A DNA stretch of 64,000 nucleotides, taken from NCBI RefSeq assembly GCF_030512175.1, contig NZ_JAULBL010000001.1, forward strand, positions 310,001-374,000, read 5' to 3'. Numbering within the stretch: position 1 is the first letter of the stretch; every line of letters begins with the position of its first letter. The translations under genes and the position numbers were made by a program. Shown here in pieces: positions 2,142 through 25,405 of the stretch. Under the pieces are notes generated by a model that saw nothing but the letters and a program-made list of their open reading frames with translations, did no database searches and was not told the origin of the DNA. The DNA is from Paeniglutamicibacter sulfureus. GTDB taxonomy: Bacteria > Actinomycetota > Actinomycetes > Actinomycetales > Micrococcaceae.

Positions 2142-2159
2142 GACCAAAGGCCGGAAGGC

Positions 2160-3786: not shown

Positions 3787-3804
3787 TAGCCTAGAAACCT
3801 AGGA

Positions 3805-6030: not shown

Positions 6031-6416
6031 TTGGGGGCATTCCTTTCGATCGCTCCCAGGACACTTTGGATGCGTACCCAGTGTTCCGTACCCGGATCTG
6101 GTCTTCGATCGAGACTCGCGCTACTAAAAGGTAGATACCCTGAGCGAAAGCCACTACCGAGGACCGCGATCTGCGCGGCGTGGACCCTGATGCACACGGT
6201 CCGGGGAGTAATTGTTTGTTGTGGTTTTCCGCAATACACGGAGAACCACGTATAAGACTACCGGGAATCCTGGAAAGGTGCAGTTCTGCTTGATTTCCAG
6301 AGCGCATGGGTTAAATGCGATCCAAACCGGTGGGTACCGCTATGTTCGGCCGCATATCAGTAGCACGGCTTCCACATTCAACCCAAAGTCATGGTGTCTC
6401 TCCAACTTGATACAGT
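6031..6416. other. pnp leader and upstream region
   Basis: No gene is seen here. On the minus strand this is the pnp 5' region. It contains an inverted repeat, GTGGTTTTCCG (6221-6231) with CGGAGAACCAC (6239-6249), having one G/T mispair and a 7-base loop. The stretch CTACCTTTTAGTAG near 6121-6134 is a smaller palindrome. The plus-strand promoter at 6407-6435 lies at the far end. The pnp promoter itself could not be placed with confidence. Confidence 0.45.
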
Positions 6417-6435
6417 TTGCGGCTTAGCATAAGAA
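6407..6435 (+). promoter_or_regulatory. Candidate sigma-A-like promoter of the pore-loop membrane protein
   Basis: TTGATA at 6407-6412 is followed by a 17-base spacer and TAAGAA at 6430-6435. Transcription would start near 6442. That falls inside the longest reading frame downstream and argues for a later translation start. Confidence 0.45.
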
Positions 6436-6440
6436 TCACT

Positions 6441-7883
6441 TTGAGGAGCAGCCAGATCGTCAAACAACGGCCACAACGCAATCAGAAGGTTTATGCCCGC
6501 TCGGCTAATTTCCGAGACGATTCGCCTTCTCCACCACCCGCTCCGTCAAATGAAGTATGGGACCTCATCAACAAACTGGTTGCTGAGAACCCGAGTCCTG
6601 ACGCATCCGCAGATACACGAAAAGATCCAACGCGGCGTCGCCGTGGCCTTACTCGTCGTCGTAGGAAGCGCACGGACTGGCGTCGGGCCCTTGACGTCGT
6701 TGCATCCGCCGTTTGGACATTCATAGTTGTCAAATTGTTCATCGGTGACCTCGACAGAGTCATGCTCACCGCCATATGGCCAGAGGCAGTGTGGCTACTC
6801 GATTTTCGATGGCTACTCGTTCTGGTCTTGGCTGCCTTGCTTCTTTTACTTTTCAACTGGCGACGACTCGGGCTCAGCCTGGCATATGTGATTGGGTTTC
6901 CACTCGTGCTCACCTGCTGGAAATTCCCTAAGTTTCTGATCAAGAAACGTAGCTCACTATTTGTCGTTGGCTTTGCTGGCATCGTGATGAGCTTAGGATC
7001 AAAAGCACGCCCATTCATCATTGCACTGGCGATCGCGTGTCTGTCCGGTTTCATGATTACTTCAACTGAGCAGCCATGGGTCATAGCGGGGATCATCGCG
7101 ATGGTTCTGGTGCTGGTTTGGTGGCTTTCAATAACTGCCATCGACCTCTTACGTTCAACCGCCTTCATTCGTGCTCAAAAGAAGTTCATCAACTGGGCCC
7201 TGGAGAAGCGGTTTATTGACAAACTCCCCGCACCGATTGTCCCCAATCGTGTCACGATCCAGTCATGGACCATTGACGACGCAAGAAAATTCCGGGATAG
7301 CACAGGTTACAGCGTTCTCGTGACACGCGTATTGCAATTCTGGGCAGTTTGTATAGACCAGTACCGCAAAGGGCCGTCGGTCGTCCTACTAAATATCTTT
7401 GCCACCGTCGGCCTAACAATCCAAGTCATACTAGCTTTTACGTTTATTAACCTTGGCGTATATATACTCGCACCAGCCCAATTCTCCAGTTCATCCTCAA
7501 CAGAATGGTGGACTTTTGTCTACTATTCAGCCGCCGGAACATATTTTGGAGAGATCAGCGCTTTAGCACCCGTCGGCAGCTTCGCGATTATTTCGAAGCT
7601 GCTCAATGGCATCCTTGGTTTGCTCGTCGTTGGCACAGTCATTCTCTCTATCACGCTGAATTACCGAAGCGTACGAGCTGACATTGATGCCGACGGAGTC
7701 GTAGGCGCACTAACTGAGAAAGCATCCGAATTGGAGAAAATTTCTTCCGCACAGCATCAAATGTCACTACGAGACCTCGAGAACCGCCTTATCACCGCAG
7801 GATGGGGCTTTCTGGGGATAATGCAGTGGCTCTCGAACCATGCAGCGGGGCAAGAACAACGAACACCCACTGACAAATCGTAG
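6441..7883 (+). CDS. Multi-pass membrane protein with two-TM ion-channel-like pore module
   Basis: The frame is open from 6417 (488 codons), but the promoter at 6407-6435 makes TTG at 6441 or a later codon more likely, and no good ribosome site is visible. Residue numbers refer to the long frame. An Arg-rich segment (72-90) precedes about four membrane helices (95-240) and a soluble linker (250-320). Then comes a helix-loop-helix pair: TM 325-348, re-entrant segment WWTFVYYSAAGTYFGEISALAP at 364-385, TM 388-412. This matches the Ion_trans_2 pore layout, but the K+ filter TVGYGD is replaced by GTYFGE. The C-terminus may form a short coiled coil (430-465). GC content is visibly lower than in the core genes. 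Channel function is inference. Confidence 0.6.
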   Translation: MRSSQIVKQRPQRNQKVYARSANFRDDSPSPPPAPSNEVWDLINKLVAENPSPDASADTRKDPTRRRRGLTRRRRKRTDWRRALDVVASAVWTFIVVKLFIGDLDRVMLTAIWPEAVWLLDFRWLLVLVLAALLLLLFNWRRLGLSLAYVIGFPLVLTCWKFPKFLIKKRSSLFVVGFAGIVMSLGSKARPFIIALAIACLSGFMITSTEQPWVIAGIIAMVLVLVWWLSITAIDLLRSTAFIRAQKKFINWALEKRFIDKLPAPIVPNRVTIQSWTIDDARKFRDSTGYSVLVTRVLQFWAVCIDQYRKGPSVVLLNIFATVGLTIQVILAFTFINLGVYILAPAQFSSSSSTEWWTFVYYSAAGTYFGEISALAPVGSFAIISKLLNGILGLLVVGTVILSITLNYRSVRADIDADGVVGALTEKASELEKISSAQHQMSLRDLENRLITAGWGFLGIMQWLSNHAAGQEQRTPTDKS

Positions 7884-8494
7884 CTTTGGACTTTGCGGCA
7901 ATCATCCCTCAACAAGTTATATGGGAGGCATGATTTCATGGAGGGTTCAGTTCCAGATCTAATAGATGTGGCTATCCCGCCTAACCGTCCCCTCCCGTTA
8001 CCTTTTTCGTAGCCCCGCAACCGAGACTCATGGGTAAGGAGTGGGGTTGCTGGCCTGTCTGTGTCGGTCCCGGCATAATCCGCTCCCCCTGTCATTCATG
8101 ATCCAGGGGGCTGTCACCGGGACCGAAAGGCACCAAGGAAATAGGGCCGGATCCGGACAATCCACCACCCATCCATTTGCCGGTCGTAACGTGGATGCCG
8201 AGCTGCTAAATAGCCTCAGGAGTTAGTCCTGTTCCGGCTTATTGGTAGTGTCGTTCCGGCCACGCGAAAATCTCCGGGCCCTTCGCTGCTCTACCCGATC
8301 CGATCTCCCCGCAAGACGGGGGGCGACCACATCAGGCAGGCGATGGCTCAGTGGTGAGCCTCCACGGCAACCTTCGCTCCGGTCGGGACCAACACGCCAT
8401 GTCTCGACCGCGAAGAAGGCCATCCCAGCGGTTGGCAGCGCTACCATCCGCTGAGGTGCGCCGGCTACCCCAGCAATGCAACGTCGGGTCCCCC
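7884..8494. other. Gene-poor stretch before the insertion-sequence nest
   Basis: No supported gene. It holds the inverted repeat at 8064-8126. From about 8240 the composition rises in GC, and short frames are consistent with decayed 5' parts of the IS1380-type transposase. Similarity is too weak to place a boundary. Confidence 0.4.
8064..8126. repeat. Compound inverted repeat
   Basis: Outer arms TCGGTCCCGG (8064-8073) and CCGGGACCGA (8117-8126) enclose inner arms CCCCCTG (8085-8091) and CAGGGGG (8104-8110). It has no trailing T run. It could be a structured transcript end for 6441-7883 or a mobile-element remnant. Confidence 0.55.
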
Positions 8495-8747
8495 GACGCC
8501 CAGCACCGCGCCCGCAGATGCGAGAACAGCACCAGCCCCGAGGAACACGGGCCTCGGCAAGTGTCCCTACTTCTCGTTTGCCACCAACGAGGCGTGGGCC
8601 GACCTGGCGATGTTCGCAATGAACCTGGTGTCAAGGATCCAGCTCGCGGTCCTGCCGTGGGGGCACGCCGCCGGGGTCTGGGACGTGAAGCGGTAGCCTT
8701 ACCGGCTGTTTTCGATGGCCGGGAAACTGGTGCGCGGAGCACGGCAA
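8495..8747 (+). pseudogene. IS1380-family transposase relic, 5' part
   Basis: Fragments match the C-terminal third of IS1380-family transposases. HRARRCEN appears in one frame. After a frameshift come NTGLGKCPYFSFATNEAW, ADLAMFAMNLVSRIQL and, after a TAG at 8694-8696, YRLFSMAGKLVRGARQ. The frameshift and stop show the gene was already dead. The outer IS21-type element starts at 8748, directly after CGGCAA. The reading frame resumes at 14057 beyond that element. Confidence 0.75.
8742..8747. repeat. Target site duplication of outer IS21 element (left)
   Basis: CGGCAA here is repeated at 14051-14056, directly outside the two ends of the outer element. Confidence 0.85.
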
Positions 8748-8891
8748 TGTTTAGGCGGAGCTTTCGGTAGCGCATGTGGAACGAACCGGTAGCAAAAATG
8801 TAAGTATCCGGTAGCGCTTCGGGGGATTCAGAGTCAGGATTGCTTTCACCCACGGCAACAGGTCGTGGACAGTGAAAGGAAACCGACCGTA

Positions 8892-10544
8892 GTGGCTGAT
8901 TACAAACAAATCATGGCCCTGCTGGTGCAGGGCAATTCGTATCGGCAGGTCCAAGCGCGAGCCGGTTGCTCGCATCGAACGATCTCCAAGGCCCGCCAGG
9001 TCCTTGACGACCAGAAACTGACCACCCTTGATCAGGTCGGTGCGCTTAGCGATGAGGACCTTGACCGGCTTTTCAGCGATGGCCGCAAGAACGTGTCCAG
9101 CGAGTTCGTTCCCGTCAACATCGATGCCGTGGTGAAGGCCCGGATCGGCCGGAAAAAGCCACCGTTAAAGGTCATGTGGGCCCGCTACCTGGACACCCCG
9201 CACACGGGCTCCGCCCGGTTTTACGGGTATGAACGGTTCTGCCAGATCGTTGCCGAGCACGTGAAGGCCAACGACCTGACCAGCCCGCTTACGCACGAAC
9301 CCGGACGCACGATGCAGGTCGACTGGGCCGGGACCAAGATGCAGCTGACCGACCCCATCACCCGGGAAACCACGAAGGTCTCGGTCTTCGTGGCGTCGTT
9401 GCCGTATTCGGGCATGATCTTCGCGTACGGGTCCCTGGACGAGAAGCTTCCAGCGTGGTGCCAGATGCACCGCAGGGCCTTTGAATATTTTCAAGGCGTG
9501 ACCCAACTGGTCATTCCCGACAATGCCTCGACCGCCTCGAACCAGATCAGCCGCTATGAAAAGGCCCGGGACGTGAACCAGTCCTATGAGGCTTTCCTGG
9601 AGTATTACCAGAGCGCGGCAGTCCCGACCGGATCCTACAAGCCGCAAGAGAAAGGCCACGTCGAGGCCGGGGTGAAGATCGTGACGAACTGGATCATCCA
9701 CTATCTTGCCGACCGGCGCTTCACGACCCTGGATGAGCTCAATGAGGCCGTGGCCGAACAGATGGACATGATCAACGAACGGACGCCCTTCCGCGGTGAG
9801 CCCCGCTCCCGGCGTGAGTGGTTCGAGGAAGCCGAGCGCCCCGAGTTGATCGGCCTCCCGGATGAGCCGTGGCGGGAAGTTCAGTGGCGCAAGGCGAAGG
9901 TCTCGCGGGACTGGCACGTGCAGGTCGACACGATCAAATACTCGGTTCCGCACCAGCACGCCGGGCAGACCCTGGACGTGCGGGTGGTCGGTGAGCAGGT
10001 CACGATCCTTGCCGGCGGGGCAGTGATCGCTTCGCACCAGCGTGGGGCGCGGCGTCATTCCTACGTCACCGACGCCGACCATGCGCCGCACGGGTATGAG
10101 GACACCTCACTGCTATGGACCCGGGCCTATTTCATCCGGCAAGCGACCAAGGTCGGCCCCTACACGGTCCAGGCTTTGACCCGGTTGCTGGAGCGGAAGA
10201 AGATCGAAGCCCAGGGCTACCGGTCGTGCTTGAACATCCTCGAGCTGGGGAAAGGCAACAACCGCAGCCTGTTGGAACAGGCCTGCCACGACCTCTGCGT
10301 GCACGACGCGAGGAACCCGATCAGCTATACCGCGGTCAAGCATCGCATCGCCGTCCTGCGTGCGGACCATGCCGGGCGTCCTGCAACTCTCGCTCCTGGC
10401 CCGGGGCCGTCCGCTGCGACGGGGAGAACGGTGGGCGTCCGGGATACCAGCCGTGCCCACCTGGACGGGATCTCGCAGTTCAGTCTCGAGGCGCTGACCA
10501 ACGCAAGCCTGACCGAGCCGACGACGGGGGAAGGCCGTGCTTGA
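8892..10544 (+). CDS. istA: IS21-family transposase IstA (outer element)
   Basis: DDE transposase of the outer element. An N-terminal helix-turn-helix lies in IMALLVQGNSYRQVQARAGCS. The catalytic core shows Asp in QVDWAG, Asp in VIPDNAS and Glu in GHVEAGVK, and the frame is intact to the end. GTG at 8892 is chosen because AAAGGA lies about 11 bases before it; GTG at 8865 is an alternative in the same frame. The stop overlaps the istB start by 8 bases, the usual IS21 arrangement for coupled translation. The element looks functional except that its right end has been split. Confidence 0.92.
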   Translation: MADYKQIMALLVQGNSYRQVQARAGCSHRTISKARQVLDDQKLTTLDQVGALSDEDLDRLFSDGRKNVSSEFVPVNIDAVVKARIGRKKPPLKVMWARYLDTPHTGSARFYGYERFCQIVAEHVKANDLTSPLTHEPGRTMQVDWAGTKMQLTDPITRETTKVSVFVASLPYSGMIFAYGSLDEKLPAWCQMHRRAFEYFQGVTQLVIPDNASTASNQISRYEKARDVNQSYEAFLEYYQSAAVPTGSYKPQEKGHVEAGVKIVTNWIIHYLADRRFTTLDELNEAVAEQMDMINERTPFRGEPRSRREWFEEAERPELIGLPDEPWREVQWRKAKVSRDWHVQVDTIKYSVPHQHAGQTLDVRVVGEQVTILAGGAVIASHQRGARRHSYVTDADHAPHGYEDTSLLWTRAYFIRQATKVGPYTVQALTRLLERKKIEAQGYRSCLNILELGKGNNRSLLEQACHDLCVHDARNPISYTAVKHRIAVLRADHAGRPATLAPGPGPSAATGRTVGVRDTSRAHLDGISQFSLEALTNASLTEPTTGEGRA

Positions 10545-11310
10545 CCACCACCTGACGGAAGATGACATGGGGCTGTTTACCAGGTTGCGGATGACCGCGT
10601 TCGGCCAGGCTGTCATCGACATGGCCAACGATCCGGCCTATGACGAATGGACGTTCTCCCGCAAGGTCCGTCACGCCTTGGACCAGGAGACCACGGCCCG
10701 GGCCCAGCGTCGGGTGGTGAAACTGCTCAAGGAGTCGAAAACGCCCAACCCGGCCGCTTGCATTGAAGAGATCCACTATCTGCCCGATAGGACGCTGAAC
10801 CGGGAGGTCGTGGCACGGCTCGCGTCGTGCCAGTGGATTGAGCAGACGACGAATCTGGTGATCCTCGGGAAATCAAGTGTCGGCAAATCGTATTTGGCCC
10901 AGGCCTTGGTCAACGCGGCTTGCCGGCACGACCACACGGCACGCTACTTCCGGCTTGATGACCTGGCCAATAAGCTCGCGGTCTATCATCGGGCGGACTC
11001 CGAACGGCTGAAGTTCCTCGGAGACCTGCACGACTGCGATGTCCTGGTCCTGGATGATTTCCTGACCACGCCGATCAGCCCGGAGACTGCGAGCGAACTG
11101 CTCAATATCCTTGCAGGACGTGAACACCGGGGCGCCACGGTGGTGACGTCGCAGTTCGATCCCGAGGACTGGTACAAGTCGCTGCACGATGCGGTGATCG
11201 CCGAGTCAATCCTTAACCGCATTGTTTCCAGCAGTGAACTGATCCAGCTTGACGGGCCGAATATGCGCCGGCGCGCCCACGCCGATCAAGGAGCTGAGCC
11301 TGCAAGCTAA
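10537..11310 (+). CDS. istB: IS21-family helper ATPase IstB (outer element)
   Basis: AAA+ ATPase that assembles with IstA on target DNA. The Walker A motif GKSSVGKSYLAQAL and Walker B motif VLVLDDFL are intact, followed by the conserved GREHRGATVVTSQF segment. Length (257 residues) is normal for IstB. The GTG start overlaps the istA stop by 8 bases; ATG at 10567 with GGAAG five bases upstream is an alternative. The inner IS21-type element begins 47 bases after the stop. Confidence 0.92.
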   Translation: MLDHHLTEDDMGLFTRLRMTAFGQAVIDMANDPAYDEWTFSRKVRHALDQETTARAQRRVVKLLKESKTPNPAACIEEIHYLPDRTLNREVVARLASCQWIEQTTNLVILGKSSVGKSYLAQALVNAACRHDHTARYFRLDDLANKLAVYHRADSERLKFLGDLHDCDVLVLDDFLTTPISPETASELLNILAGREHRGATVVTSQFDPEDWYKSLHDAVIAESILNRIVSSSELIQLDGPNMRRRAHADQGAEPAS

Positions 11311-11351
11311 AGCGGTGGGGTGCTGGTGCGAGGGTTCGGGCACTACCGGGT

Positions 11352-11356
11352 CCTCG
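11352..11356. repeat. Target site duplication of inner IS21 element (left)
   Basis: CCTCG here matches CCTCG at 13993-13997. Removing one copy plus the inner element restores the 22-bp spacing of CCGGTAGY boxes in the outer element's right end. Confidence 0.85.
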
Positions 11357-11502
11357 TGGCAGATATGCCTAGTTGGTACGCCCATTCCACGTAGGTGGTA
11401 CCCCATTTCCGCGTAAGTGGTACCGCTTGGGGTTTCGCCGTGTTTCGCTGGACGGATTCACCGCGCATCCGGCGCCGTGAATCCGAGACAGGAGAAACGC
11501 AA

Positions 11503-13095
11503 ATGGTGGACCACAGGGCGATCATGTCGTTGCTGTTCAAGCACCGCAGCTACGCGGAGATCACGGTGTCGACGAAATGCTCACGCCGCGACGTGTCGAT
11601 GGTGAAGAAGGCTATCGAATCCGGCGGCATCACCGCGGAGCAGTGCGGGACCATGAGCGCGGCGGATATCGCCGCACTGTTCCCCGACGGGCGCAGCAAC
11701 GTTTCCTCGGAGTACGTGCAGCCCGACTTCGGACGGGTTGTCGCCGCGATGAAATCGAACCGGCACTTCACCATCCAGCAGGCCTGGACCCGCTACATGG
11801 ATGCCGCGCCAGGTGCCGGGAAGAAGTACCGGTACTCGCAGTTCGCCGAGCTCTTCGGCCGGTTCGCCGAGGCAAACGACGTCGTGGCGACGCTGCGCCA
11901 CGAGCCGGGCAAGTCGATGTTCGTCGACTGGGTCGGGGACACCCTGGACGTGCAGGACGCTGTCACCGGCCAGCTGCACAAGGCCTACCTCTTTGTTGCC
12001 TCGTTGCCGTTCTCGGGGCTGGTGTTCTGCGAGGCGTTTGCGAACATGAAGCAGGACGCCTGGAACCAGGCCCACGTGGACGCGCTGGCCTTCATCAACG
12101 GGGTCACGCAGATCATCGTGCCTGACAATGCTTCGACCGCGGTGCACCGGCGGCAGCGCGGGGACACCGAGCGGGTGGTGACCGCCAGATACCGGGAGCT
12201 GGCCGAGCACTACGGCACCGCGATCGTCCCGGCCGCACCGTACCGCCCGCGCCACAAGGCCCACGTCGAGTCGATGGTGAACACGGTCGAGAAGCGGGTC
12301 ATCGGCTACCTGGCCGAGGAAACCTGGACCACCTTCGCCGAGCTGAACGAGGCCATCGCCGAACGCCTGGTGGACATCAACGAACGCATCCACCGACCCG
12401 ACGGAACCACGCGGCAGGAACGCTTCGATGCGGAGGAATCTCCTTTCCTGCTGCCGCTGCCCGAGCTGCGGTTCGAGTCGGTGGAGTGGAAGGAACTCAA
12501 GGTCGGCAGAAATTACCATGTCGGCGCGGACTACCAGCAATATTCGGTGCCCTACCAGCTGGCGGGTAGGACGCTGCGGGTGCGGCTCACCGGCACCACC
12601 GTCACGATCTTCGACGGGCAGCAGATCGTTTGCGAGCACGCCCGCAAGCTCGGGCGCAAGGGCCAGTACTCCACGGTGCCGGAGCACGCCCCGGAGCAAC
12701 ACCGGAATATCGACGGGCTCTGGTCGCGGCAGTGGTTCCTGGATCTGGCACGCGGCTTCGGACCGGCCACCGTCCAGGTGATCACCCAGGTCCTGGACCG
12801 TTTCCCGATCGAGGCGCAGGGCTACCTGCCCTGCCAGAACATCCTCGGCGGGCTGGGCAAGAAGAACAAGGCACGCCTGGAGGCGGCCTGCCAGCAGGCG
12901 CTGAACCTGGGCGGGTATCCCACCTACAGCACGCTCAAGAGGATCATGGCCGCCATTGCCGGTGATGCCCAGGCCGGCGGCCCGCCGGTGCCGGCGGCAA
13001 GCAACGAGAAGAACACCACCTCGGACCCGGGCCAGCCCGGTGTCATGGTGCGCGGCGCGGACCACTACAAGATCGGCGGCCAGCGCAATGTTTAG
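11503..13095 (+). CDS. istA: IS21-family transposase IstA (inner element)
   Basis: This 530-residue DDE transposase starts at an ATG with AGGAG eight bases upstream. It has an N-terminal helix-turn-helix region (IMSLLFKHRSYAEITVSTKC), Asp in FVDWVGD, Asp in IVPDNAS and Glu in KAHVESMV. The frame extends upstream to 11395, but that part overlaps the terminal GGTAC boxes and is not expected to be translated. It resembles the outer IstA in layout, yet its sequence is clearly divergent. Overlaps istB by 8 bases. Confidence 0.93.
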   Translation: MVDHRAIMSLLFKHRSYAEITVSTKCSRRDVSMVKKAIESGGITAEQCGTMSAADIAALFPDGRSNVSSEYVQPDFGRVVAAMKSNRHFTIQQAWTRYMDAAPGAGKKYRYSQFAELFGRFAEANDVVATLRHEPGKSMFVDWVGDTLDVQDAVTGQLHKAYLFVASLPFSGLVFCEAFANMKQDAWNQAHVDALAFINGVTQIIVPDNASTAVHRRQRGDTERVVTARYRELAEHYGTAIVPAAPYRPRHKAHVESMVNTVEKRVIGYLAEETWTTFAELNEAIAERLVDINERIHRPDGTTRQERFDAEESPFLLPLPELRFESVEWKELKVGRNYHVGADYQQYSVPYQLAGRTLRVRLTGTTVTIFDGQQIVCEHARKLGRKGQYSTVPEHAPEQHRNIDGLWSRQWFLDLARGFGPATVQVITQVLDRFPIEAQGYLPCQNILGGLGKKNKARLEAACQQALNLGGYPTYSTLKRIMAAIAGDAQAGGPPVPAASNEKNTTSDPGQPGVMVRGADHYKIGGQRNV

Positions 13096-13855
13096 CCCCG
13101 AAGCCCATGAAAAGTTCAAGGCCCTGCGCATCACCCGCCTGGCCTCGAAGTTCGAGGAACTGGCCAACGACGAGGCCAACCACCGGCTCACCGCGGAGGA
13201 ACTGTTCCACGAGGCGGCCGACGACATGCTCACCGAGCGGCGGTCCGAAAGCATCGCCAAGCGCTCACGCCAGGCGGGATTCCCCATCCCCGGCGCCTCG
13301 CTGGCCGAGATCGACTACCTCGACGGCCGGTCCATCAGCGAGCGGAGCATGAACAAATATGCCACCCACCAGTGGAGCGCCGACCCGATGAACCTGATCG
13401 TCATCTCGCCCTCAGGCGGCGGAAAGACCTACCTGGTTTGCGCCATCGGAAACGCGGCCTGCCAGTCGGGGCACACCGTGTCCTATTCCAGGATGGACGA
13501 CCTGGCCCGCAAGCTCGTGGCGACCCGCAGCGATGCCATCGCGCACCAGGAACTGCTCAACAAGCTAACCGAGGTTGACCTGCTGGTTATAGATGATTTC
13601 CTCACCGTCGGGATCGACCAGAACGCGGCCAGCGACCTCTTCGCGATCCTCGCCGACCGCGAGCACCGTCTCCCGACCGTCATCGCCGCCCAAACCGATC
13701 CCAGCTACTGGGTCCAGGCCCTGCCCGACCGGGTGGCGGCGGACTCCATCGTCAACAGGCTGGCGAACAACACCCGCTGGATCCTGATGGGCGACCGCGA
13801 CATGCGCCGGACCAAGCACGACCAGGCCCGCGCCAGCGAGGAATTCTGGGAGTAA
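13088..13855 (+). CDS. istB: IS21-family helper ATPase IstB (inner element)
   Basis: This 255-residue AAA+ helper starts at the ATG inside the last codons of istA (CGCAATGTTTAG). The P-loop is SPSGGGKTYLV, with Gly-Gly-Gly in place of the more usual variable residues. Walker B is LLVIDDFLTVG, followed by REHRLPTVIAAQTD. The frame is complete and ends 137 bases before the element's right terminus. Confidence 0.92.
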   Translation: MFSPEAHEKFKALRITRLASKFEELANDEANHRLTAEELFHEAADDMLTERRSESIAKRSRQAGFPIPGASLAEIDYLDGRSISERSMNKYATHQWSADPMNLIVISPSGGGKTYLVCAIGNAACQSGHTVSYSRMDDLARKLVATRSDAIAHQELLNKLTEVDLLVIDDFLTVGIDQNAASDLFAILADREHRLPTVIAAQTDPSYWVQALPDRVAADSIVNRLANNTRWILMGDRDMRRTKHDQARASEEFWE

Positions 13856-13992
13856 ACACCGCCCGCACACCCACAAGCGGGAACACCGAGGTGGTGCCGG
13901 GAAAAGGATCAAGATCCGGTGCCCGGTACCACCTGTCCGGAAGGCCGGTACCACTTACGTGGAACATCCGTACCATCTAGGCATATTTGCCA

Positions 13993-13997
13993 CCTCG
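13993..13997. repeat. Target site duplication of inner IS21 element (right)
   Basis: CCTCG, matching 11352-11356. Confidence 0.85.
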
Positions 13998-14050
13998 CAC
14001 CAGTGCTACCGGTTCGTTCCACAGGCGTTACCGAAAGCTCCGTCCATACA

Positions 14051-14056
14051 CGGCAA
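14051..14056. repeat. Target site duplication of outer IS21 element (right)
   Basis: CGGCAA, matching 8742-8747. It lies in the IS1380-type reading frame as Arg-Gln. Confidence 0.85.
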
Positions 14057-14167
14057 ACCCGGCTGCTGCCCCCGTGCACGGCGCCCGAGGCGGAACTGGT
14101 CATGGGCCTGCACAACCGCATCACCCGTGCCCACCAGCACTTCAGGCACCGCAACGTGGCCGCCTAA
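14057..14167 (+). pseudogene. IS1380-family transposase relic, 3' end
   Basis: Joined to the fragment ending at 8747, the frame reads ...VRGARQ then TRLLPPC...NRITRAHQHFRHRNVAA and stop (14165-14167). This gives a continuous transposase C-terminus interrupted only by the outer IS21-type element. It confirms the insertion point and the order of events. Confidence 0.7.
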
Positions 14168-14447
14168 ACCCGCGGCCCGGCCCACCGCGACGAGACGAAA
14201 GGCCAAGACCCCGGGCAGTGGAACCCGGCACCACCGGCCGGCGACATGGCCGCCGGCGGGCTGCCCTAAAAACGGGACGGGCCGCCCATCCCGGGAAGTT
14301 CACGGAACCAGCGGCCGCCGGGCACCCGATGAAAGATCTGGACTAGCTGCCTAGTTCGGAAGAGCGTTGTTGACCTGCGCTGGCAGCTCGAACGCTAAAG
14401 AGGGCAGCTCTAGCCAGGTTGACTTCTACCAGCATGGAGCATTAGTC

Positions 14448-17120
14448 CTATTCGCCGACCTCGACTGCCTCCGCTCGGCGTCGACCGTTCGTATCGTTGC
14501 CAACCGAAAAAGCAACGTTTAGTCCAATGAGCAGTTGTGAGAAGGATGCTCCACCAACGAGACCGGTTTTGTGGAAGTAGATTGTTTCTTCCGTAACGTT
14601 GGTAAGGATAAATCCGAACCCTTCCTTGAGACTATGTATAGTTCCCAGCATTCGGCCGTCACCGGCTTCAATGGTAGGGTTCCGGCTCTCAGCATTCGAC
14701 TGGGTCGGTTCTGCCTCAATCAGCTCCATGTTCTTCAGCAATCTAGAAAAAGCATAGGGTTGGTTACCGGAAAAACTGTACTGGGAAGCAGTTTTCCGCA
14801 GAGCATGCCAAGCTTCAGCGCCAGAGATTTGTGACAACCGTTTGGTCAACTTGTCAAAGAAATCGGGCATTGTGTCAACTTCATGGCCAAATGCTTGGCA
14901 TCTCATGAGGTAATGAATCGCAGCATTTGCCGCTTGACAAGCCGTTTCTCTCAGTTTCTGATCCGCCGCCCCAATGTCTAGTTCGTCAGAGGCAAGTTCG
15001 TAGGCGCAGATGGCGTCATAGGCGGCCTGAACCGGATTTCGTGATTCTCTCAGCGACCAAGAAGCACGTCCCATATATGCTGCTGCCAAAGCAGTTGTGG
15101 CTATAAGTCTAAGTCGCCCCTCGGCAGCCGACGCCGCCTGCTCAAGAAGTTGGATCCCTTCATCGTATTGGTTATGCCAGACGAGAGCGGTACCCAACGT
15201 CGAGGCCGTATCAGGAAGCATCAATACTTCGTGGGCTTCTCTCGCGTACGGAATGGCAAGCCCTGGTTCCATCAAATTCCGAGCAAGCAACCCAGCAAAG
15301 TAGTGCGCGACTACCGCCTTATGCTCTTGCGTTTCTGCAAGGCGATATGCATCCAGGTAACTTTCCCTGGCCCCCAGCTTGTCTCCCTTGTTAGCGTGTA
15401 TGAATCCTTCGACTCGGTGGACTTCCCAAAATTCTGGGTTGAGTTGCTTAGCTTCCCCAACAAGTTCCAGCGCGCGGACATAGTCGCGGCCTTTAGATGA
15501 TTGGAGAGCTCTCCGTAGGATCTGGGCAGTAGGCGCATCAGTTTCGAAACGTGTTCGCACAACATTTGGCCCCAAGGAGCGACGGACTTTCTCTTCCGCT
15601 CGTCTTTCTTCATCCCGGAGAAAAGTTGTTTCATTCTCCTGGACTTGCTTACGCAGCGGATGGTCTCGGGGGATCACGAGGCTAGTAAATTCCCGGGCGG
15701 TATCGGTCAACTCGATAACCATCACGAGTGAACTATCGCCTGACAACCGTGCCCGAACCAATGCTCCACGTGTAAGTTCCCGAAGCGCAGAACGAACGTC
15801 AGCAACCGACCTGCCCAGCAGGAGAACAAGATCATCCGGAGTGACGGGACGGCGAAGCACCTCCATCGCAATGAAGACTTCCACAGAGTTTGCAGACAAA
15901 TTGTCGTAGACCGAACTCACGCAATAGCTCAGTAATTCGTCTTGATGCCGAATCACATCTAGAGGATTCTTTCCTGCCTCAGTCGATAAAATGAACCAAC
16001 GGATCGCCAGCGGTGAACAGCGGAGCTTCTGAACGATATTCTTACGGGCTTCTCCCGTAATGCTTTTGAGAGCAGGAACGTTACGATGGCGGATCATTTG
16101 ATTCAACAAGAGCAAAGCATCTTTGTCGGATAGGGGACCTACTTCTATTCGGCGTTCGAGTTGTCCAATACCCTCCCTACTAGTCACCAAAAAAGACGCG
16201 TTATCCGGGAGGTTCTCATAGAGTTCAACAAAATCAGACCCGTTGATTGTTTCTAGGTTGTCGATGACTATCAGAGGAGTGAACCCTTCAATGGCTGCTG
16301 CCAGGGCCGCTATGCCGCCGGCAAAATCAGCCGAAGTGCCAGATCCAAGCTGATTAGCGATTCCAATCAAATCTGTCGCAGAGTCCCTGAGCGCCTGTAC
16401 ACCAAGCCCAGTTAACCGTTCAGTTTTCAATGACGTCCATAAGACTAGATCAAAGGGCTCTTCTGGATCGTCCAGGAGTGTATAGGCAATTTCAACGGCC
16501 AAGGCTGTCTTTCCAATGCCTCCCTCGCCGCATAAGGTAACAACCGAATCACGCTTTCGCTTCAGCGTTTGGCAAATCTTTACAACTTCCTCGTCACGGC
16601 CGATAAGTCCTGTTTCATCGTGTTCCGACTGTGGAAGATTATGCCGCACCTTATCTTCGAGCGGTTCGAATGTATCTTCCGGCATCCAAGAATCATCGTC
16701 TTGGAGGAACCGCAAGATTTTTGCAGTTCCACGCCAAAACGTGAAATCAAACTTGACTAGGGAAGACATAATTTTGTCGAAATCGCCGGAGACAAGTGGC
16801 CGACTGTGCATGACCCTATGACGAATAGGAAGAATAGTGTCGAGTTCAGATGTCAGTTCCCTGACCTGGGTGGCCAAATCCGCCGGAAGATAGCGTCGAT
16901 GCTGGTTAAGAAGATCATAAGCTGGTCTTAGGTCGAGGTAGTCGACAAGATCGGCTCCAGTTCCCATCGGATCCGCATCGCGCCTTGCTTCCAAGTCAGT
17001 GAGCGCACCACCGAATATGACAGCATCGTCACCGACCTGCGATTTGATGAATCTACGCAAGTGCCCTCGAATGTCCCTTTCGAAAGCGTCGATTAGAGCG
17101 TACATCTGTTGAGAACTCAC
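14448..17120 (-). CDS. STAND NTPase: HEPN-like N-terminus, NB-ARC core, TPR-like repeats, cold-shock-like C-terminus
   Basis: The protein has 890 residues; GTG start with GGGAG six bases upstream. Residues 1-125 are helical and contain R100-x4-H105 (RHRVMH), the HEPN ribonuclease signature, in a layout like Swt1-type HEPN domains. The NTPase core follows: Walker A GEGGIGKTA (198-206), Walker B LIVIDNLE (283-290), sensor VTSRE (312-316) and a winged-helix region to about 500. Residues 560-770 form helical hairpins of TPR type. Residues 820-890 read as a cold-shock/S1-like fold (GTIHSLKEGFGFI, YFHKTGL, GLNVAFSV). GC is well below that of neighbours, suggesting transfer. It lies alone beside the IS nest. 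An RNA-targeting abortive-infection role is inference. Confidence 0.75.
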   Translation of the reverse strand: MSSQQMYALIDAFERDIRGHLRRFIKSQVGDDAVIFGGALTDLEARRDADPMGTGADLVDYLDLRPAYDLLNQHRRYLPADLATQVRELTSELDTILPIRHRVMHSRPLVSGDFDKIMSSLVKFDFTFWRGTAKILRFLQDDDSWMPEDTFEPLEDKVRHNLPQSEHDETGLIGRDEEVVKICQTLKRKRDSVVTLCGEGGIGKTALAVEIAYTLLDDPEEPFDLVLWTSLKTERLTGLGVQALRDSATDLIGIANQLGSGTSADFAGGIAALAAAIEGFTPLIVIDNLETINGSDFVELYENLPDNASFLVTSREGIGQLERRIEVGPLSDKDALLLLNQMIRHRNVPALKSITGEARKNIVQKLRCSPLAIRWFILSTEAGKNPLDVIRHQDELLSYCVSSVYDNLSANSVEVFIAMEVLRRPVTPDDLVLLLGRSVADVRSALRELTRGALVRARLSGDSSLVMVIELTDTAREFTSLVIPRDHPLRKQVQENETTFLRDEERRAEEKVRRSLGPNVVRTRFETDAPTAQILRRALQSSKGRDYVRALELVGEAKQLNPEFWEVHRVEGFIHANKGDKLGARESYLDAYRLAETQEHKAVVAHYFAGLLARNLMEPGLAIPYAREAHEVLMLPDTASTLGTALVWHNQYDEGIQLLEQAASAAEGRLRLIATTALAAAYMGRASWSLRESRNPVQAAYDAICAYELASDELDIGAADQKLRETACQAANAAIHYLMRCQAFGHEVDTMPDFFDKLTKRLSQISGAEAWHALRKTASQYSFSGNQPYAFSRLLKNMELIEAEPTQSNAESRNPTIEAGDGRMLGTIHSLKEGFGFILTNVTEETIYFHKTGLVGGASFSQLLIGLNVAFSVGNDTNGRRRAEAVEVGE

Positions 17121-17402
17121 GAATTTCTCCCGTAGTCGAAAAATTTATCCGATCATTCACATGTGAGGACGATAGGATAAATGTAAATGCCTAACTGGCA
17201 GTTTAGGGGCAATAAATATCCCTCTCTGCACATACTTCTAGACATGGATGGTCTTCGGCCAATTCTATCTCGGTTCAGATCGTCACCTAGCCGCTGTATC
17301 GACCAGCTTCTTGAACTCGGATATTAGCAAGTCAGTGGACAAGGAAAAGGTACGGTTTTACCGACAAACGTTCACAACGCAATCATCAGCATTATTAGGA
17401 AA
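17121..17402. other. AT-rich upstream region of the HEPN-STAND gene
   Basis: No gene is supported. The first 120 bases are AT-rich (TTTACATTTATCCTATC and GGATAAATTTTTC on the minus strand) and should hold the promoter of the STAND gene. No single -35/-10 pair stands out. Confidence 0.35.
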
Positions 17403-17795
17403 CTATGTCTTATCCCATAAGGCTTTATGAAAAGTCCGGTATCCGGTTACATCCTTGACGTTGTTATCTCGTGGCGTGAACGGGGTGGCTACTGTGAAAA
17501 GTGGAATATCAGACGTTAGCGCGATCTTCCGCTTGAAGTGTGCAGTGTTTTCCAGCAATTTATCCTGCTTTTCGCCCTGGACCGATCTTTGAAGATATTG
17601 TGTATCGCCAAGCCCGGTGGCCGTTACTTCGGCGCGTACACGGAAAGCGTTACAACGCGAACCGCTAGGATCCTGAGCTGCATGTGCGCCTCTGGCGGTG
17701 ACTTCCAAACGATCGTTACCGGACACCGAAATCCTTAGTCGCTTACTCGCATCCAGGACCACGCGCTTAGCACCAACCGCTGTACCGATTGGCAA
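17403..17795 (-). CDS. Hypothetical beta-rich protein or gene remnant
   Basis: A 130-codon frame opens after a stop at about 17817 and would have to start at TTG 17795. No ribosome site is visible. The composition looks protein-like, with alternating hydrophobic strands (KRVVLDASKRLRISVSGNDRLEVTARG), but no family is recognised. It may be the surviving 3' part of a longer gene. It lies between the HEPN-STAND gene and the YbdK-type ligase, all on the minus strand. Confidence 0.25.
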   Translation of the reverse strand: MPIGTAVGAKRVVLDASKRLRISVSGNDRLEVTARGAHAAQDPSGSRCNAFRVRAEVTATGLGDTQYLQRSVQGEKQDKLLENTAHFKRKIALTSDIPLFTVATPFTPRDNNVKDVTGYRTFHKALWDKT

Positions 17796-17840
17796 GTTGG
17801 TCTCGTCATCGACTTACGCGACCGCCAACTCAGTTTGCGG

Positions 17841-19010
17841 CTAAGCCACTGCCTCGGCCAATGGCTTCCATGTCCAGCTCGGTGAGCCGTTGCCCGAAGG
17901 GTTGTCATCGAAGGATTCTTGGTGCGTCAGGCCGATGGCGTGGGTGACGACGTCTGCCAGTCGCCCGTTTAGTTCGAAGGATTGCCGCTGCCGGCTTGCG
18001 CCTGTTCCGTTGCTGAGGATCCTTTCCAGGGCTTCCTCGACGTAATCCGCGTCCCCGGACTCGTTCAGGGCATCCCGCACATGGTCATGGAGTACCGAAA
18101 TGACGTGTCGTGCGTTGTCCGGCCTGTGGGTTACGGGGTGGAGCAGTTCGCCGCGGATGCCCCACCGGCTGGCCATCCAGACCCCTTGGCGCAGGACGAT
18201 GGCCGGAACCATGTCAGGTTCCATTCCGGCTTCCCATTCCCGGGCGGCGGTCTCCACCAGGGCCCGCACGAGGGCTGCGAGCAGGACGGTATCCCGGGGA
18301 TCAAGGCAGACATCGGACACCCTGATCTCGACGGTGGGGTGCCGGGCGGAGAGTCGGGCGTCAAAATCCGGGTTGATGACCACTGTCGTGGCTGATATGT
18401 CCGCCACCAGCGAGTGGTAGGCCCACGCCGACCCGAAGACCTCCATGGGACCGGCCGAGGACCACCGGTTCCAGGCCTGCGTGCGGTAACTGGCGTAGCC
18501 ACTGTCCTGGCCGTTCCAGAACGGGGAATTCGAGCTCAATGCCATGAGCGAAGGCAGCCAAGACCTGATGCGATCCAGGACAGCCACGCCCTCCTCGTCC
18601 GAGTCCACTGACACGTGGACATGGAGTCCACAGGTCAGCTGCTCGCGCGCCGTCAGGGCATACTTCTCCACCAGGGCGTCATAGCGTTCGTTCCTGGTGG
18701 GATGAGGCGAAACCGCCAGCGGAGACGTGGCCAGGGCGACGATCCTCGCACCCGCTTTTCGCGCGAGCGAGTCGGCGTAGGCGCGCCCCTCCAGTATCTC
18801 CGTGGCGAGACTCGCCAGGCTGCTGTGCGGGTGCGTGATGACTTCGAGCTGTTCCTGGTGCAGCTCTGCGGACAGCATTTGCCGGACGGACGAGCCGGAC
18901 GCCCGCGAACTTGCATCGTGGAGGCCCATCACCTCCGCGGACAGGGGCAAGGGGACCCCGTTGACGGGGTCCACGATCAGGAATTCTTCTTCAACACCAA
19001 AGGTACGCAC
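17841..19010 (-). CDS. ybdK: Carboxylate-amine ligase, YbdK/GCS2 family
   Basis: ATP-grasp-like glutamate-cysteine ligase family 2 protein of 389 residues. Signatures include the N-terminal FGVEEEFLIVD, LHQEQLEVIT, GLHVHVSVD, SSNSPFWNGQDSGYASYR and HPTVEIRVSDVC. E. coli YbdK has weak gamma-glutamylcysteine synthetase activity; the true substrate in actinobacteria is not certain. The start is GTG at 19010, which gives the conserved N-terminus. An in-frame TAG lies just before it and AGGAG abuts the start codon, so initiation may depend on coupling to the small upstream frame. Confidence 0.9.
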   Translation of the reverse strand: MRTFGVEEEFLIVDPVNGVPLPLSAEVMGLHDASSRASGSSVRQMLSAELHQEQLEVITHPHSSLASLATEILEGRAYADSLARKAGARIVALATSPLAVSPHPTRNERYDALVEKYALTAREQLTCGLHVHVSVDSDEEGVAVLDRIRSWLPSLMALSSNSPFWNGQDSGYASYRTQAWNRWSSAGPMEVFGSAWAYHSLVADISATTVVINPDFDARLSARHPTVEIRVSDVCLDPRDTVLLAALVRALVETAAREWEAGMEPDMVPAIVLRQGVWMASRWGIRGELLHPVTHRPDNARHVISVLHDHVRDALNESGDADYVEEALERILSNGTGASRQRQSFELNGRLADVVTHAIGLTHQESFDDNPSGNGSPSWTWKPLAEAVA

Positions 19011-19233
19011 CTCCTAAGTGTGGACTATGAAAGCGACAACTGAATCCACGCCTAACGACAGGCCGTCGCAGCGCCAGTGCACCGGAAGGATCTTCGCCTA
19101 AACGGGCCAAGACATAAAAGTAAACGGGCTCCTCGCCACCTCTTCGGGCGAGCTCGAAAGCGGGCGGTCCGTTCCGGTAAATGACGTCGAAAAGGTCAAC
19201 AGCCACATCGGTGCGGGCAATAGATAAGGGCAC
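18991..19233 (-). CDS. Small hypothetical ORF coupled to the YbdK-type ligase
   Basis: This 80-codon frame starts at GTG with a G-rich stretch upstream and ends 20 bases inside the ligase gene. It encodes DVAVDLFDVIYRNGPPAFELARRGGEEPVYFYVLARLGED and an Arg-rich tail. No family is recognised. The overlap and the poor independent start of the ligase make a leader role plausible, but it could be a chance frame. Confidence 0.35.
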   Translation of the reverse strand: MPLSIARTDVAVDLFDVIYRNGPPAFELARRGGEEPVYFYVLARLGEDPSGALALRRPVVRRGFSCRFHSPHLGGAYLWC

Positions 19234-19617
19234 CCCTTTGCCAATCCCCCATCGCGATGCTCCTCAACCAAAAATTACGACGATCAAGTACGCACGAGAA
19301 ATCAGGGCCGCAGAACTCCCATAGACTTTGCCCGCGATGCTGGCGCGGAACCTGACCCAAACGCTACGCCCAGATCATCCGGAATCGGATTGTTGGCATC
19401 GCCGTGCGCTCAGCGCTAGTAGTCGGCACCAGACCCGTAGATCTTAATGACCTTGTCAGCTGGGTCGGAATGACGATTTTCGGGAAGAAATGACTGGCCT
19501 AATTCTTGCCGCTCATTTGGCCTGAAATGATCCACCAACTTGGCATATATTCTTAGCTGAAACGTCCCACAGTAGGTCGATCGCACACAGACCCGCTGCT
19601 CCAACGTCTATCCTGGG
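19234..19617. other. Intergenic region between ligase and caspase-STAND genes
   Basis: No gene is supported; a 62-codon minus-strand frame (19416-19604) lacks recognisable features. A promoter for the YbdK-type ligase would be expected near 19240-19330. Confidence 0.35.
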
Positions 19618-22428: not shown

Positions 22429-22510
22429 GGTCTATCACAATTCCGATTGCGGGGATAGGATCTTGAGCCACAGATCCGCTGGCTTTGACCAACTGCAGGG
22501 AGAAGTTCCG

Positions 22511-23446
22511 ATGGCTGAAATTGTGCTGGTTCACGGTATGGCTCAGGAACAGGAGACCGCCGATTCCCTTGAACAGACGTGGCTCCCAGCCTTGGCCGGC
22601 GGCATCCGCACCGCAGGCTATGGCGATCTGGCCGACAGGATCTGGCGCAACCACCATTCGGAAGGCACCATCGATGTCCGGATGGCCGCTTACGGAGACC
22701 TGTTTACCACGCCCGATGCGCAGGGGTCCGATGATGGCTTGGACGCTCTAGATCCCGAAAAACTGACCCTGGCCGAATCCCTCGCCGCAGAATGGCTGAA
22801 CCGGGCTGCCGGGCGCGCGGATCACCCTGACCACGAGATCGCAGTTCGTGAGCTCGGATTTCTGGACCCGGCCCACGAAGCCATGGGAATCAAGGAAGAA
22901 GCAGTTCGGTCCATGATCAACGCTGCCACCCAACTGCCGTGGTTCGGTCTTCGGGCCATGGCAGTGGCCGAGCTCCTGAAGAGACCTTTGCGCCAAGTCA
23001 CCGCCTATATGACCGACCAGGCCCTGCACGACGAGATCCAGAGCCGTGTCCTGGCACATGTCGGACCGGAGACGAAGGTCATTGTCGGCCATTCCCTGGG
23101 ATCTGTCGTGGCCTACGAAGTGGCCGCCCAGCAGCTCACTAACAGGTTGCCTCTGCTGCTCACGATCGGCAGCCCCTTGGGACTGCGCAGCATCATCTAC
23201 GACCGGCTCCAACCCCGCCCGCCCGAATACCCGTCCGGGACCCGCCGATGGGTCAACATCGCCGATCGAAACGACCTCGTCGCTGCCGAACCAAATCTCA
23301 CAGGCCTCTTTGAACGAAACAGGCCTGCCGACGCCATCTTGGAATCTGGCTGGACAGTTAAAAACGGCGCCAAACCGCATCAGGGTGAGTACTATCTTGG
23401 AAAACGAGAAGTGGGTAAGCCCATTGCTGAAACCCTCAACAGTTAG
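22511..23446 (+). CDS. Alpha/beta hydrolase (esterase/lipase-like)
   Basis: Starts at ATG 22511 with GGGAGAAG six bases upstream, giving 311 residues. Family landmarks are the N-terminal strand and oxyanion loop (MAEIVLVHGMAQEQ), the nucleophile elbow VGHSLGSVVAYE, IGSPLGLRSIIYDRL and an acid/His region (VNIADRNDLVA, KPHQGEYYLG). It has no signal peptide, so it should act in the cytoplasm on a lipid or ester. It is divergent from the caspase-STAND gene over an 82-base shared upstream region. Alpha/beta hydrolases recur beside caspase/STAND proteins in bacterial conflict loci, so it may be an accessory effector. Substrate unknown. Confidence 0.85.
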   Translation: MAEIVLVHGMAQEQETADSLEQTWLPALAGGIRTAGYGDLADRIWRNHHSEGTIDVRMAAYGDLFTTPDAQGSDDGLDALDPEKLTLAESLAAEWLNRAAGRADHPDHEIAVRELGFLDPAHEAMGIKEEAVRSMINAATQLPWFGLRAMAVAELLKRPLRQVTAYMTDQALHDEIQSRVLAHVGPETKVIVGHSLGSVVAYEVAAQQLTNRLPLLLTIGSPLGLRSIIYDRLQPRPPEYPSGTRRWVNIADRNDLVAAEPNLTGLFERNRPADAILESGWTVKNGAKPHQGEYYLGKREVGKPIAETLNS

Positions 23447-23498
23447 GTACCACTCAGCCCTGCCACCAGATGAATAAGTCCTAATCGGTACCGAGGAC

Positions 23499-23541
23499 AT
23501 AAAGATCCCAGTCCATTTGGACTGAGGTCTTTATATTTTTT
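23499..23541 (+). terminator. Rho-independent terminator of the alpha/beta hydrolase gene
   Basis: A hairpin of ATAAAGA..AGTCC (23499-23514) with GGACT..TCTTTAT (23519-23534) is followed by a T6 run at 23536-23541. Confidence 0.88.
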
Positions 23542-23918
23542 GTCGGAGAGCGTCAATGGGCTTTGGCAGACATTTTGGTGGTTACAGTTTTCGGCCCGAA
23601 ATGGACAAACACCGCGGAACCATGCGGTTTCGAAGCAAGCCGGGATCACCAAGGGCAGAGTATGGATCCGACCATGCCACAAAGATCTTTCCCTGCTTGT
23701 GAATAGCCGGCGCCTGCTGCTCGTCTGGGACAACCGTGAGGACATGACGCAGCCGGTGGCGAGACTGATCGGGGTGTTTCTGAGAAGAGGTTCTAGGATC
23801 CGGATCCTAGCAGCCAGCAGGAAGCCCTTGGGGCTCATCTAAGAACCCTTACGGCACCATGCTTCGCCATGAAGACCACGCAAAGTGCCGCTCCCCCGGC
23901 AGCCGCAGCTGGTAGCGG
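23542..23918. other. Relic-bearing intergenic stretch
   Basis: Apart from the ATPase fragment at 23708-23842 nothing is recognisable. Upstream bases keep a weakly protein-like frame (VWIRPCHKDLSLLV) that probably belonged to the same lost gene. Confidence 0.4.
23708..23842 (+). pseudogene. Fragment of LuxR/AfsR-type ATPase regulator
   Basis: RRLLLVWDNREDMTQP, then VARLIGVFLRRGSRIRIL and AASRKPLGL, align by eye with the Walker B region (RLLLVLDNCEH...VARLV...RILATSREPLG) of MalT/AfsR-like STAND regulators. A stop follows directly. Walker A and all other domains are missing. Confidence 0.55.
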
Positions 23919-24944: not shown

Positions 24945-25118
24945 AGGGCGCCCCGCTGTTGCTCGGGGGCGGACGGCTGAGCGTGGAAGCCTCTGTCAAG
25001 GCGCATCATTGGCATGCTCCGAGTATAGGGCGGCGAGCAGACCTGCGACGAGTGAAACGGGGGTCGGCGGTACAGGAAAGGCTGACCCGGCCGGACTTTC
25101 CCCAGCGCACCGAGGCTG

Positions 25119-25403: not shown

Positions 25404-25405
25404 GC

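What the first reader, a model, noticed from the sequence alone, without database searches (positions are those of the whole stretch)
14448..17120. HEPN-like / NB-ARC STAND / TPR / cold-shock-like fusion: candidate RNA-targeting immune sensor
Seen: an RHRVMH HEPN motif near the N-terminus, intact Walker A/B and sensor motifs, a TPR-like region and a C-terminal cold-shock-type fold in one 890-residue protein with lower GC than its surroundings. Known: HEPN domains are common RNase effectors, and STAND proteins act as oligomerising switches in bacterial immunity. Inference: a phage signal sensed through the TPR/CSD half could trigger RNA cleavage. I do not recall a described system with a nucleic-acid-binding cold-shock domain at the sensor end.
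Basis: partly seen in the sequence, partly recalled or inferred. Interest (0 to 1): 0.8.

Follow-up and report, generated by a model that had tools for sequence, protein, structure and literature searches.

The report
Predicted RNA-cutting bacterial immune switch
The gene encodes a bacterial cousin of animal and plant immune receptors, joining a predicted RNA-cutting domain, an ATP-driven switch and an RNA-binding cold-shock domain; it sits where a sister strain carries other anti-virus genes, and the design was noted in print in 2013 but I found no test of it.

Summary
Window 14448-17120 (-) is an 890-residue ORF; NB-ARC and CSD pass Pfam cut-offs. The N-terminus is a Swt1-like HEPN: below the Pfam cut-off, inconclusive by structure prediction, but supported by profile-profile comparison. 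The CSD also matches CspA/UNR structures. Relatives of the same plan occur in Actinomycetota, Rhizobium, Planococcus and (divergent) Acinetobacter. Of 16 full-length members the HEPN Arg is kept in 16, the His in 15, Walker A in 16, the CSD in 15. A same-species genome lacks the gene and has, in the same pnp-YbdK slot, a type III-A retron, two GmrSD-type proteins and a GIY-YIG/Schlafen-type helicase; three other congeners show no known defence gene there. Three of 13 relative loci lie near BREX, type I R-M or OLD/Gabija-like genes. Reading: a single-gene, STAND-gated HEPN RNase of abortive-infection type; the CSD is either nucleic-acid sensor or substrate-targeting arm. The novelty claim fails: Anantharaman et al. 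2013 (PMC3710099) already describe bacterial HEPN + STAND proteins, some with C-terminal cold-shock-like OB-folds. New member of a known kind for which my searches found no experiment. No activity was shown here.

The parts
14448..17120 (-). 890-aa HEPN - NB-ARC/STAND - TPR-like - CSD protein (whole gene)
16611..17120 (-). residues 1-170: Swt1-like HEPN domain (aligned core about 9-117) and linker; R100 to H105 of R-x4-H lie at 16806-16823
15981..16595 (-). residues 176-380: NB-ARC/STAND NTPase; Walker A 198-205 (K204), DNLE 287-290, TSR 313-315
14700..15461 (-). residues about 554-807, limits by eye: TPR-like helical region (TPR_2 at 566-596, below Pfam cut-off in this protein; TPR_2 matches 11 of 12 members of A2 at E<=1)
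14463..14648 (-). residues 825-886: cold-shock (CSD) OB-fold
14273..14293 (-). terminator-like hairpin downstream of the gene
   Evidence: 7 found, 4.5 expected by chance in the region
6170..17789 (.). variable slot: no match longer than 150 bp in the same-species genome G795, which carries 19.3 kb of other DNA there

Best explanation
A single-gene, NLR-like immune switch. At rest the NB-ARC ATPase holds the protein inactive. During infection the C-terminal half (TPR-like repeats plus cold-shock domain) meets a phage-linked signal, the STAND module exchanges nucleotide and oligomerises, and the N-terminal HEPN domains are brought together as dimers that cut RNA, stopping growth or phage production (abortive infection). 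The cold-shock domain binds single-stranded nucleic acid, most likely RNA, and either reports the signal or brings RNA to the HEPN sites. Shown here by sequence: domain make-up, conservation of the HEPN and Walker residues, conservation of the CSD, patchy distribution, defence-gene context in part of the cases. Inferred from family knowledge (recalled): oligomerisation, dimeric RNA cleavage, abortive outcome, nucleic-acid binding by the CSD. Open: which part senses what.
For: HEPN: the profile of 14 family N-termini (A5) against L068, a 48.1-bit Pfam HEPN_Swt1 hit that I picked by eye as the most similar of the hits: prob 90%, E 1.7e-6 for that single comparison, score 42.0 against a maximum of 23.5 in 200 shuffles, R and H in register. 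Against all 14 usable Swt1-like hits together: prob 44%, E 2.3e-4, 0 of 200 column shuffles as high, reversed control E 0.52. Arg kept in 16 of 16 and His in 15 of 16 full-length members, Walker A GGxGKT in 16 of 16. CSD in 15 of 16, CspA/UNR fold match. Slot swap: same-species G795 matches window 1967-6169 at 95.6% and 17790-26062 at 96.3%, with 19.3 kb of other DNA between that encodes RT_III-A (E 3e-80), a PRTase_III-A effector (7e-31), two GmrSD-type proteins and a GIY-YIG/Schlafen-helicase protein. Relatives near BREX (L028), OLD/GajA-like ATPase and PD-T4-6-like kinase (L055), annotated type I R-M (L020). No neighbour gene shared by three or more of 16 loci within 6 kb. Rare and patchy: 8 of 395 family genomes, this one and one fragment included.
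Against: No activity data. The HEPN fold model was inconclusive and the Pfam HEPN score is below cut-off in this protein (13.3 against 27.5; best E 0.022 among the 7 of 12 members that match at E<=1). Three other congeners have metabolic genes, transposases or unknowns beside pnp and no PADLOC hit among the 10 proteins chosen, so the slot is variable rather than dedicated to defence. Of 13 relative loci whose neighbours I looked at, 10 show no clear defence system. L014 has Lys in place of the HEPN His; L009 lacks the CSD; the N-terminus of L023 is not recognised by the family HMM. No PADLOC model fits the protein (best Avs4, E 0.077).
Confidence: 0.72

Rival explanations
1. A sub-reading of the best explanation: the TPR region senses a phage protein, as the C-terminal part does in Avs proteins, and the CSD is not a sensor but a targeting arm that delivers or orients RNA for the HEPN nuclease.
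For: L009 keeps HEPN, STAND and repeats but has no CSD. In Avs2 the C-terminal sensor domain recognises the viral protein (PMC12724215 passage), and TPRs are proposed as sensor in a TIR-STAND-TPR protein (PMC9122126 passage). In CoCoNuT systems CSDs are read as RNA-binding parts (PMC11090510 passages).
Against: The CSD is retained in 15 of 16 full-length members across three phyla at the C-terminus, the usual sensor end; L009 may be a truncated copy (sequence after its stop looks transposase-like by eye; not tested).
Confidence: 0.4
2. The HEPN domain is an RNA-binding, non-cutting module and the protein is a STAND regulator of host transcripts or translation (in the sense of MalT-type STAND regulators, recalled), not an immune effector.
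For: Some Swt1-like HEPN domains are inactive (PMC3710099 Table 1 passage); L014 has lost the His.
Against: R-x4-H is kept in 15 of 16 full-length members, although the 11 compared are only 19-61% identical to the window protein; patchy presence and defence neighbours are unlike a housekeeping regulator.
Confidence: 0.12
3. Plasmid or mobile-element maintenance or competition module rather than anti-phage.
For: Relatives sit on Rhizobium, Planococcus and Acinetobacter plasmids; IS21 elements lie next to the window gene.
Against: No antitoxin-like partner is conserved; at least six members (window, L001, L009, L010, L033, L035) lie on contigs over 1.5 Mb, so most likely chromosomes.
Confidence: 0.15

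Closest known systems
Bacterial HEPN (Swt1-like) + STAND (+TPR, +S1 or cold-shock OB-fold) proteins listed by Anantharaman et al. 2013 (PMC3710099: gi 229028907 of Bacillus cereus; Npun_F6454, MED222_16016, Desac_1927)
   Same: Same order of parts: N-terminal HEPN, STAND NTPase, TPR, C-terminal OB-fold RNA-binding domain; the text names cold-shock-like OB-folds for some members and calls the STAND-TPR-S1 group mostly active
Avs/AVAST and bNACHT STAND defence proteins
   Same: Works like them in plan: N-terminal effector, STAND switch, C-terminal sensing half
   Different: No PADLOC Avs or other STAND model reaches a meaningful score (best Avs4 E 0.077); effector is HEPN; C-terminal CSD
CoCoNuT type IV restriction systems (PMC11090510, passages)
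   Same: Combine HEPN and cold-shock domains in systems predicted to target RNA
   Different: Multi-gene, McrBC GTPase-based, with coiled-coils; no STAND-TPR core named in the passages seen
Ava_2192 / DUF499 Swt1-HEPN-AAA ATPases (Hma / BREX-related systems)
   Same: Swt1-like HEPN at the N-terminus of a large ATPase in defence loci
   Different: Different ATPase, with methyltransferase and helicase partners (passages of PMC3710099 and PMC12839542)

Membership tests
HEPN superfamily (Swt1-like) | R-x4-6-H motif | tested here: met
   RHRVMH at 100-105; Arg 16 of 16, His 15 of 16 full-length members
HEPN superfamily (Swt1-like) | Pfam HEPN_Swt1 above curated cut-off | tested here: not met
   13.3 bits against 27.5 for this protein; 7 of 12 members match at E<=1, best 0.022
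HEPN superfamily (Swt1-like) | Profile homology to accepted Swt1-like HEPN | tested here: met
   hhalign to L068 prob 90%, E 1.7e-6, 0 of 200 shuffles; to 14 hits together prob 44%, E 2.3e-4, 0 of 200
HEPN superfamily (Swt1-like) | Four-helix HEPN fold | tested here: inconclusive
   all-helical model, pLDDT 57; best HEPN structure 8yuf rank 3 with E 1.4
HEPN superfamily (Swt1-like) | RNase activity | not testable with these tools
   needs bench assay
STAND NTPase, NB-ARC type | NB-ARC domain with Walker A/B | tested here: met
   PF00931 29.7 bits over 23.5; NB-ARC at E<=1 in 12 of 12 members of A2
Cold-shock domain | CSD profile and five-strand OB barrel | tested here: met
   PF00313 27.8 over 27, 7 of 12 members at E<=1; model pLDDT 77 with five strands, CspA E 2.4e-5 and target TM 0.84
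2013 HEPN-STAND-TPR-OB architecture class | HEPN, STAND, TPR, C-terminal cold-shock/S1 OB-fold in that order | tested here: met
   domain order in this protein (TPR below cut-off); text of PMC3710099; direct comparison with the named sequences was not made
Avs (AVAST) | PADLOC or NCBIfam Avs model | tested here: not met
   Avs4 E 0.25 (NCBIfam) and 0.077 (PADLOC), about 8 bits
Anti-phage defence system | Occurs in defence islands or a variable slot | tested here: met
   slot swap with retron III-A and GmrSD-type proteins in the same species but no known defence gene in three congeners; 3 of 13 relative loci with clear defence neighbours
Anti-phage defence system | Protects against phage | not testable with these tools
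   needs bench assay

The most novel reading that the evidence does not exclude
The cold-shock domain is itself the pathogen sensor: a bacterial NLR that recognises single-stranded phage nucleic acid (for example abnormal RNA pools or ssDNA) through a C-terminal CSD and answers by HEPN RNA cleavage, a compact one-gene parallel to RIG-I- or OAS/RNase L-like sensing, spread across Actinomycetota, Bacillota and Pseudomonadota.
Probability: 0.3. Interest if true: 0.75.

Novelty: new member of a known kind. Interest (0 to 1): 0.45.

Why it matters
The STAND defence proteins whose triggers I know of recognise phage proteins (recalled; Avs example in the passage). A STAND switch with a conserved nucleic-acid-binding domain at one end and a predicted RNase at the other makes nucleic-acid sensing by bacterial NLR relatives directly testable in one gene. 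The architecture was named in 2013 and my searches found no experiment on it; the slot swap with a retron and restriction-type genes gives a reason to test it.

Tried and rejected
Rejected: 'an undescribed architecture' (PMC3710099). Rejected as relatives: L004-L006 (short TPR matches), L008 (71-residue P-loop match), L015 and L016 (other N-termini, match only over NB-ARC), L017-L019 (27-residue P-loop matches in viral contigs). No match in 50,697 phage records with the window protein or with L021. The promoter scan found no sigma-70-like site, 2.4 expected. L036 (359 aa: HEPN and a short NTPase part without Walker A) was dropped from the 16 full-length members. Of 12 plasmid records I fetched four; R. 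etli CP020909 gives the same scores as L022, five more Acinetobacter records the same scores as L023, and Stanieria and Anabaena match over NB-ARC only and were not examined. The idea that the slot is always a defence hotspot was not borne out in three congeners. HEPN fold by structure: inconclusive.

Literature: nine searches showed no experiment on a HEPN-STAND-CSD protein; the library lacks most subscription papers and preprints. DefensePredictor (PMC13092281, passages) reports that 4 of 31 additional validated systems have HEPN domains; the passages do not say whether any has a STAND part, and supplements could not be read. Papers seen: PMC3710099 passages and all of section 16; PMC7159879 passages and all of section 11; PMC11090510, PMC9122126, PMC8195603, PMC12839542, PMC13092281 and PMC12724215 passages only; others in search listings only.

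Full report
What is there. Window 14448-17120 (-) is one open frame of 890 residues. Pfam places NB-ARC at 176-380 and CSD at 825-886 above curated cut-offs (the CSD narrowly, 27.8 against 27), with weak TPR at 566-596 and a sub-threshold HEPN_Swt1 at 22-121. GC of the gene is about 0.50-0.57 per kb, lower than most of the window.

Is the N-terminus HEPN? Pfam alone does not say so (13.3 bits, cut-off 27.5). I searched 197 class genomes for HEPN_Swt1 (17 have a match at E<=0.001, 14 over the cut-off) and compared a profile of 14 family N-termini (16 full-length members less L014 and L023) with the hits. Fifteen hits were extracted; L069 was left out because the stretch taken was out of frame with a stop, leaving 14; L071-L073, below the cut-off, were only read by eye. 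Against the 14 together hhalign gives prob 44%, E 2.3e-4 over 54 columns, 0 of 200 column shuffles as high, reversed alignment E 0.52. Against L068 alone (48.1 bits, picked by eye as the most similar of the hits) it gives prob 90%, E 1.7e-6, 110 columns, with Arg and His of R-x4-H in register; the best of 200 shuffles scores 23.5 against 42.0. These E-values are for single comparisons. The AlphaFold model from four sequences is all-helical but poor (pLDDT 57) and its Foldseek hits are not significant, a HEPN toxin (8yuf, E 1.4) being third. I accept HEPN on sequence evidence.

Is the C-terminus a cold-shock fold? Yes. The model has pLDDT 77 and five strands; the best PDB matches are UNR CSD 4qqb (E 2.6e-6) and, third, CspA 1mjc (E 2.4e-5, TM 0.84 by target), and the 40 matches at E<=0.001 are, by their titles, nearly all cold-shock domains.

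Family. Relatives: L001-L003 in Arthrobacter (59-61%); L009, L010; L012-L014; L033-L035 and a fragment L036; plasmid copies in Rhizobium (L020, L022), Planococcus (L021) and a divergent one in Acinetobacter (L023). Of 16 full-length members, Arg is kept in 16, His in 15 (Lys in L014), Walker A GGxGKT in 16. Leave-one-out HMMs find the CSD in 15 of 16 (not L009) and the HEPN region in 15 of 16 (not L023, which still shows RNAISH), each hit above the best of 200 shuffles; three groups of close kin (window with L001-L003; L020 with L022; L010 with L012) were kept out of each other's training, other kin were not. The tree puts the 8 Micrococcaceae members in two separate groups, each with members of other families: 5 label changes, at least 2 forced by starred branches, and 205 of 500 shuffles of the label are as low, so the label is not clustered; three rows are on long branches. 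This agrees with horizontal spread or old paralogy. Frequency: 3 of 297 order genomes, 6 of 394 class genomes of which 2 match only in NB-ARC, 8 of 395 family genomes including the window's own and the fragment; the 14 other same-genus genomes listed, one of them the same species, have none.

Context. The same-species genome G795 aligns with window 1967-6169 (95.6%) and 17790-26062 (96.3%); the 11.6 kb between, which holds this gene, two IS21 istA/istB pairs and a membrane-type protein gene, has no G795 match over 150 bp and is replaced there by 19.3 kb of other DNA. Of nine proteins that I chose from that DNA, five are known or likely defence parts: a type III-A retron reverse transcriptase and its PRTase effector, two GmrSD-type proteins (both by Pfam, one also by PADLOC) and a GIY-YIG/Schlafen-helicase protein; the other four are a permease fragment, a hydrolase and two without a telling match. 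In three other congeners the DNA beside pnp carries metabolic genes, transposases or unknowns and no PADLOC hit at E<=1e-5 among 10 proteins chosen. Twenty neighbour proteins chosen from nine relative loci were scanned against PADLOC: L028 carries BrxHI/II, BrxD and PglZ starting 1.8 kb from the member; L055 a PD-T4-6-like kinase 0.3 kb on one side and an OLD/GajA/AriA-like ATPase 1 kb on the other; L002 a partial SNF2-helicase match, L003 a TnsB-like and L001 a subtilase match, which I do not count; the proteins chosen from L025, L026, L027 and L054 gave none. L020 has an annotated type I R-M operon 0.8 kb away; in L021-L023 no restriction or abortive-infection system is annotated, though L021 and L023 have toxin-antitoxin genes. 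So 3 of 13 relative loci have clear defence neighbours; L024 and L056 were not scanned. No neighbour gene is shared by three or more of 16 loci within 6 kb, which fits a one-gene system.

How it most likely works. By the rules known for STAND proteins, the C-terminal half detects a signal, the ATPase assembles, and the N-terminal effector is switched on; HEPN domains cut RNA as dimers, which assembly would provide (both recalled general knowledge). The CSD should bind single-stranded nucleic acid. I give 0.72 to a STAND-gated HEPN RNase in defence; the CSD as sensor (0.3) and the CSD as targeting arm (0.4) are sub-readings that my data do not separate. RNase activity, protection and trigger are not shown.

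Prior art. Anantharaman et al. 2013 state that bacterial proteins such as gi 229028907 of B. [quoted passage not shown] Kaur et al. 2020 list cold-shock and S1 domains among RNA-binding domains in NTP-dependent conflict systems (PMC7159879). CoCoNuTs join HEPN and CSD in another frame (PMC11090510). Hence new member of a known kind, with interest resting on its untested function.

Noticed in passing
window 19618-22428 (-): A 936-aa protein with a weak caspase (EACC1-type) match at its N-terminus (33.3 bits, cut-off 140), a P-loop/NPHP3-type NTPase region and strong TPR_10/TPR_12 repeats lies about 2.5 kb from the finding, in flank shared with the same-species genome G795: a second possible conflict gene.
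   Followed up: partly
L048:1824-13099: In the same slot of the same-species genome: two GmrSD-type proteins, a GIY-YIG/Schlafen helicase, a type III-A retron RT and PRTase effector.
   Followed up: partly
L014 (G514), residues 113-118: Natural family member with Lys replacing the HEPN His (RNRVMK), encoded near BREX genes (L028:13266-19407): a possible inactive or re-purposed HEPN.
   Followed up: partly
L009 / L024:9895-12360: Member without the cold-shock domain; no CSD remnant seen by eye in the three frames of that strand after the stop.
   Followed up: partly
window 8865-13855 (+): Two successive IS21-type istA/istB pairs downstream of the finding.
   Followed up: no
window 6417-7883 (+): 488-aa hydrophobic, membrane-type protein in the variable slot, no Pfam family; 68% identical over 81% of its length to a stretch of an Arthrobacter plasmid.
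   Followed up: no
window 17403-17795 (-): 130-aa ORF at the right edge of the slot without a Pfam hit; may be a gene remnant.
   Followed up: no
window 26063-27838: A second stretch, about 1.8 kb with a 418-aa ORF (26327-27583 +, no Pfam hit at E<=0.001), absent from the same-species genome, whose flanks there nearly abut.
   Followed up: no
L070 (G000:C9:848272-848607 +): The window's own genome has another Swt1-like HEPN match just over cut-off (29.0 bits) in a 2129-aa frame, apparently without the His.
   Followed up: no
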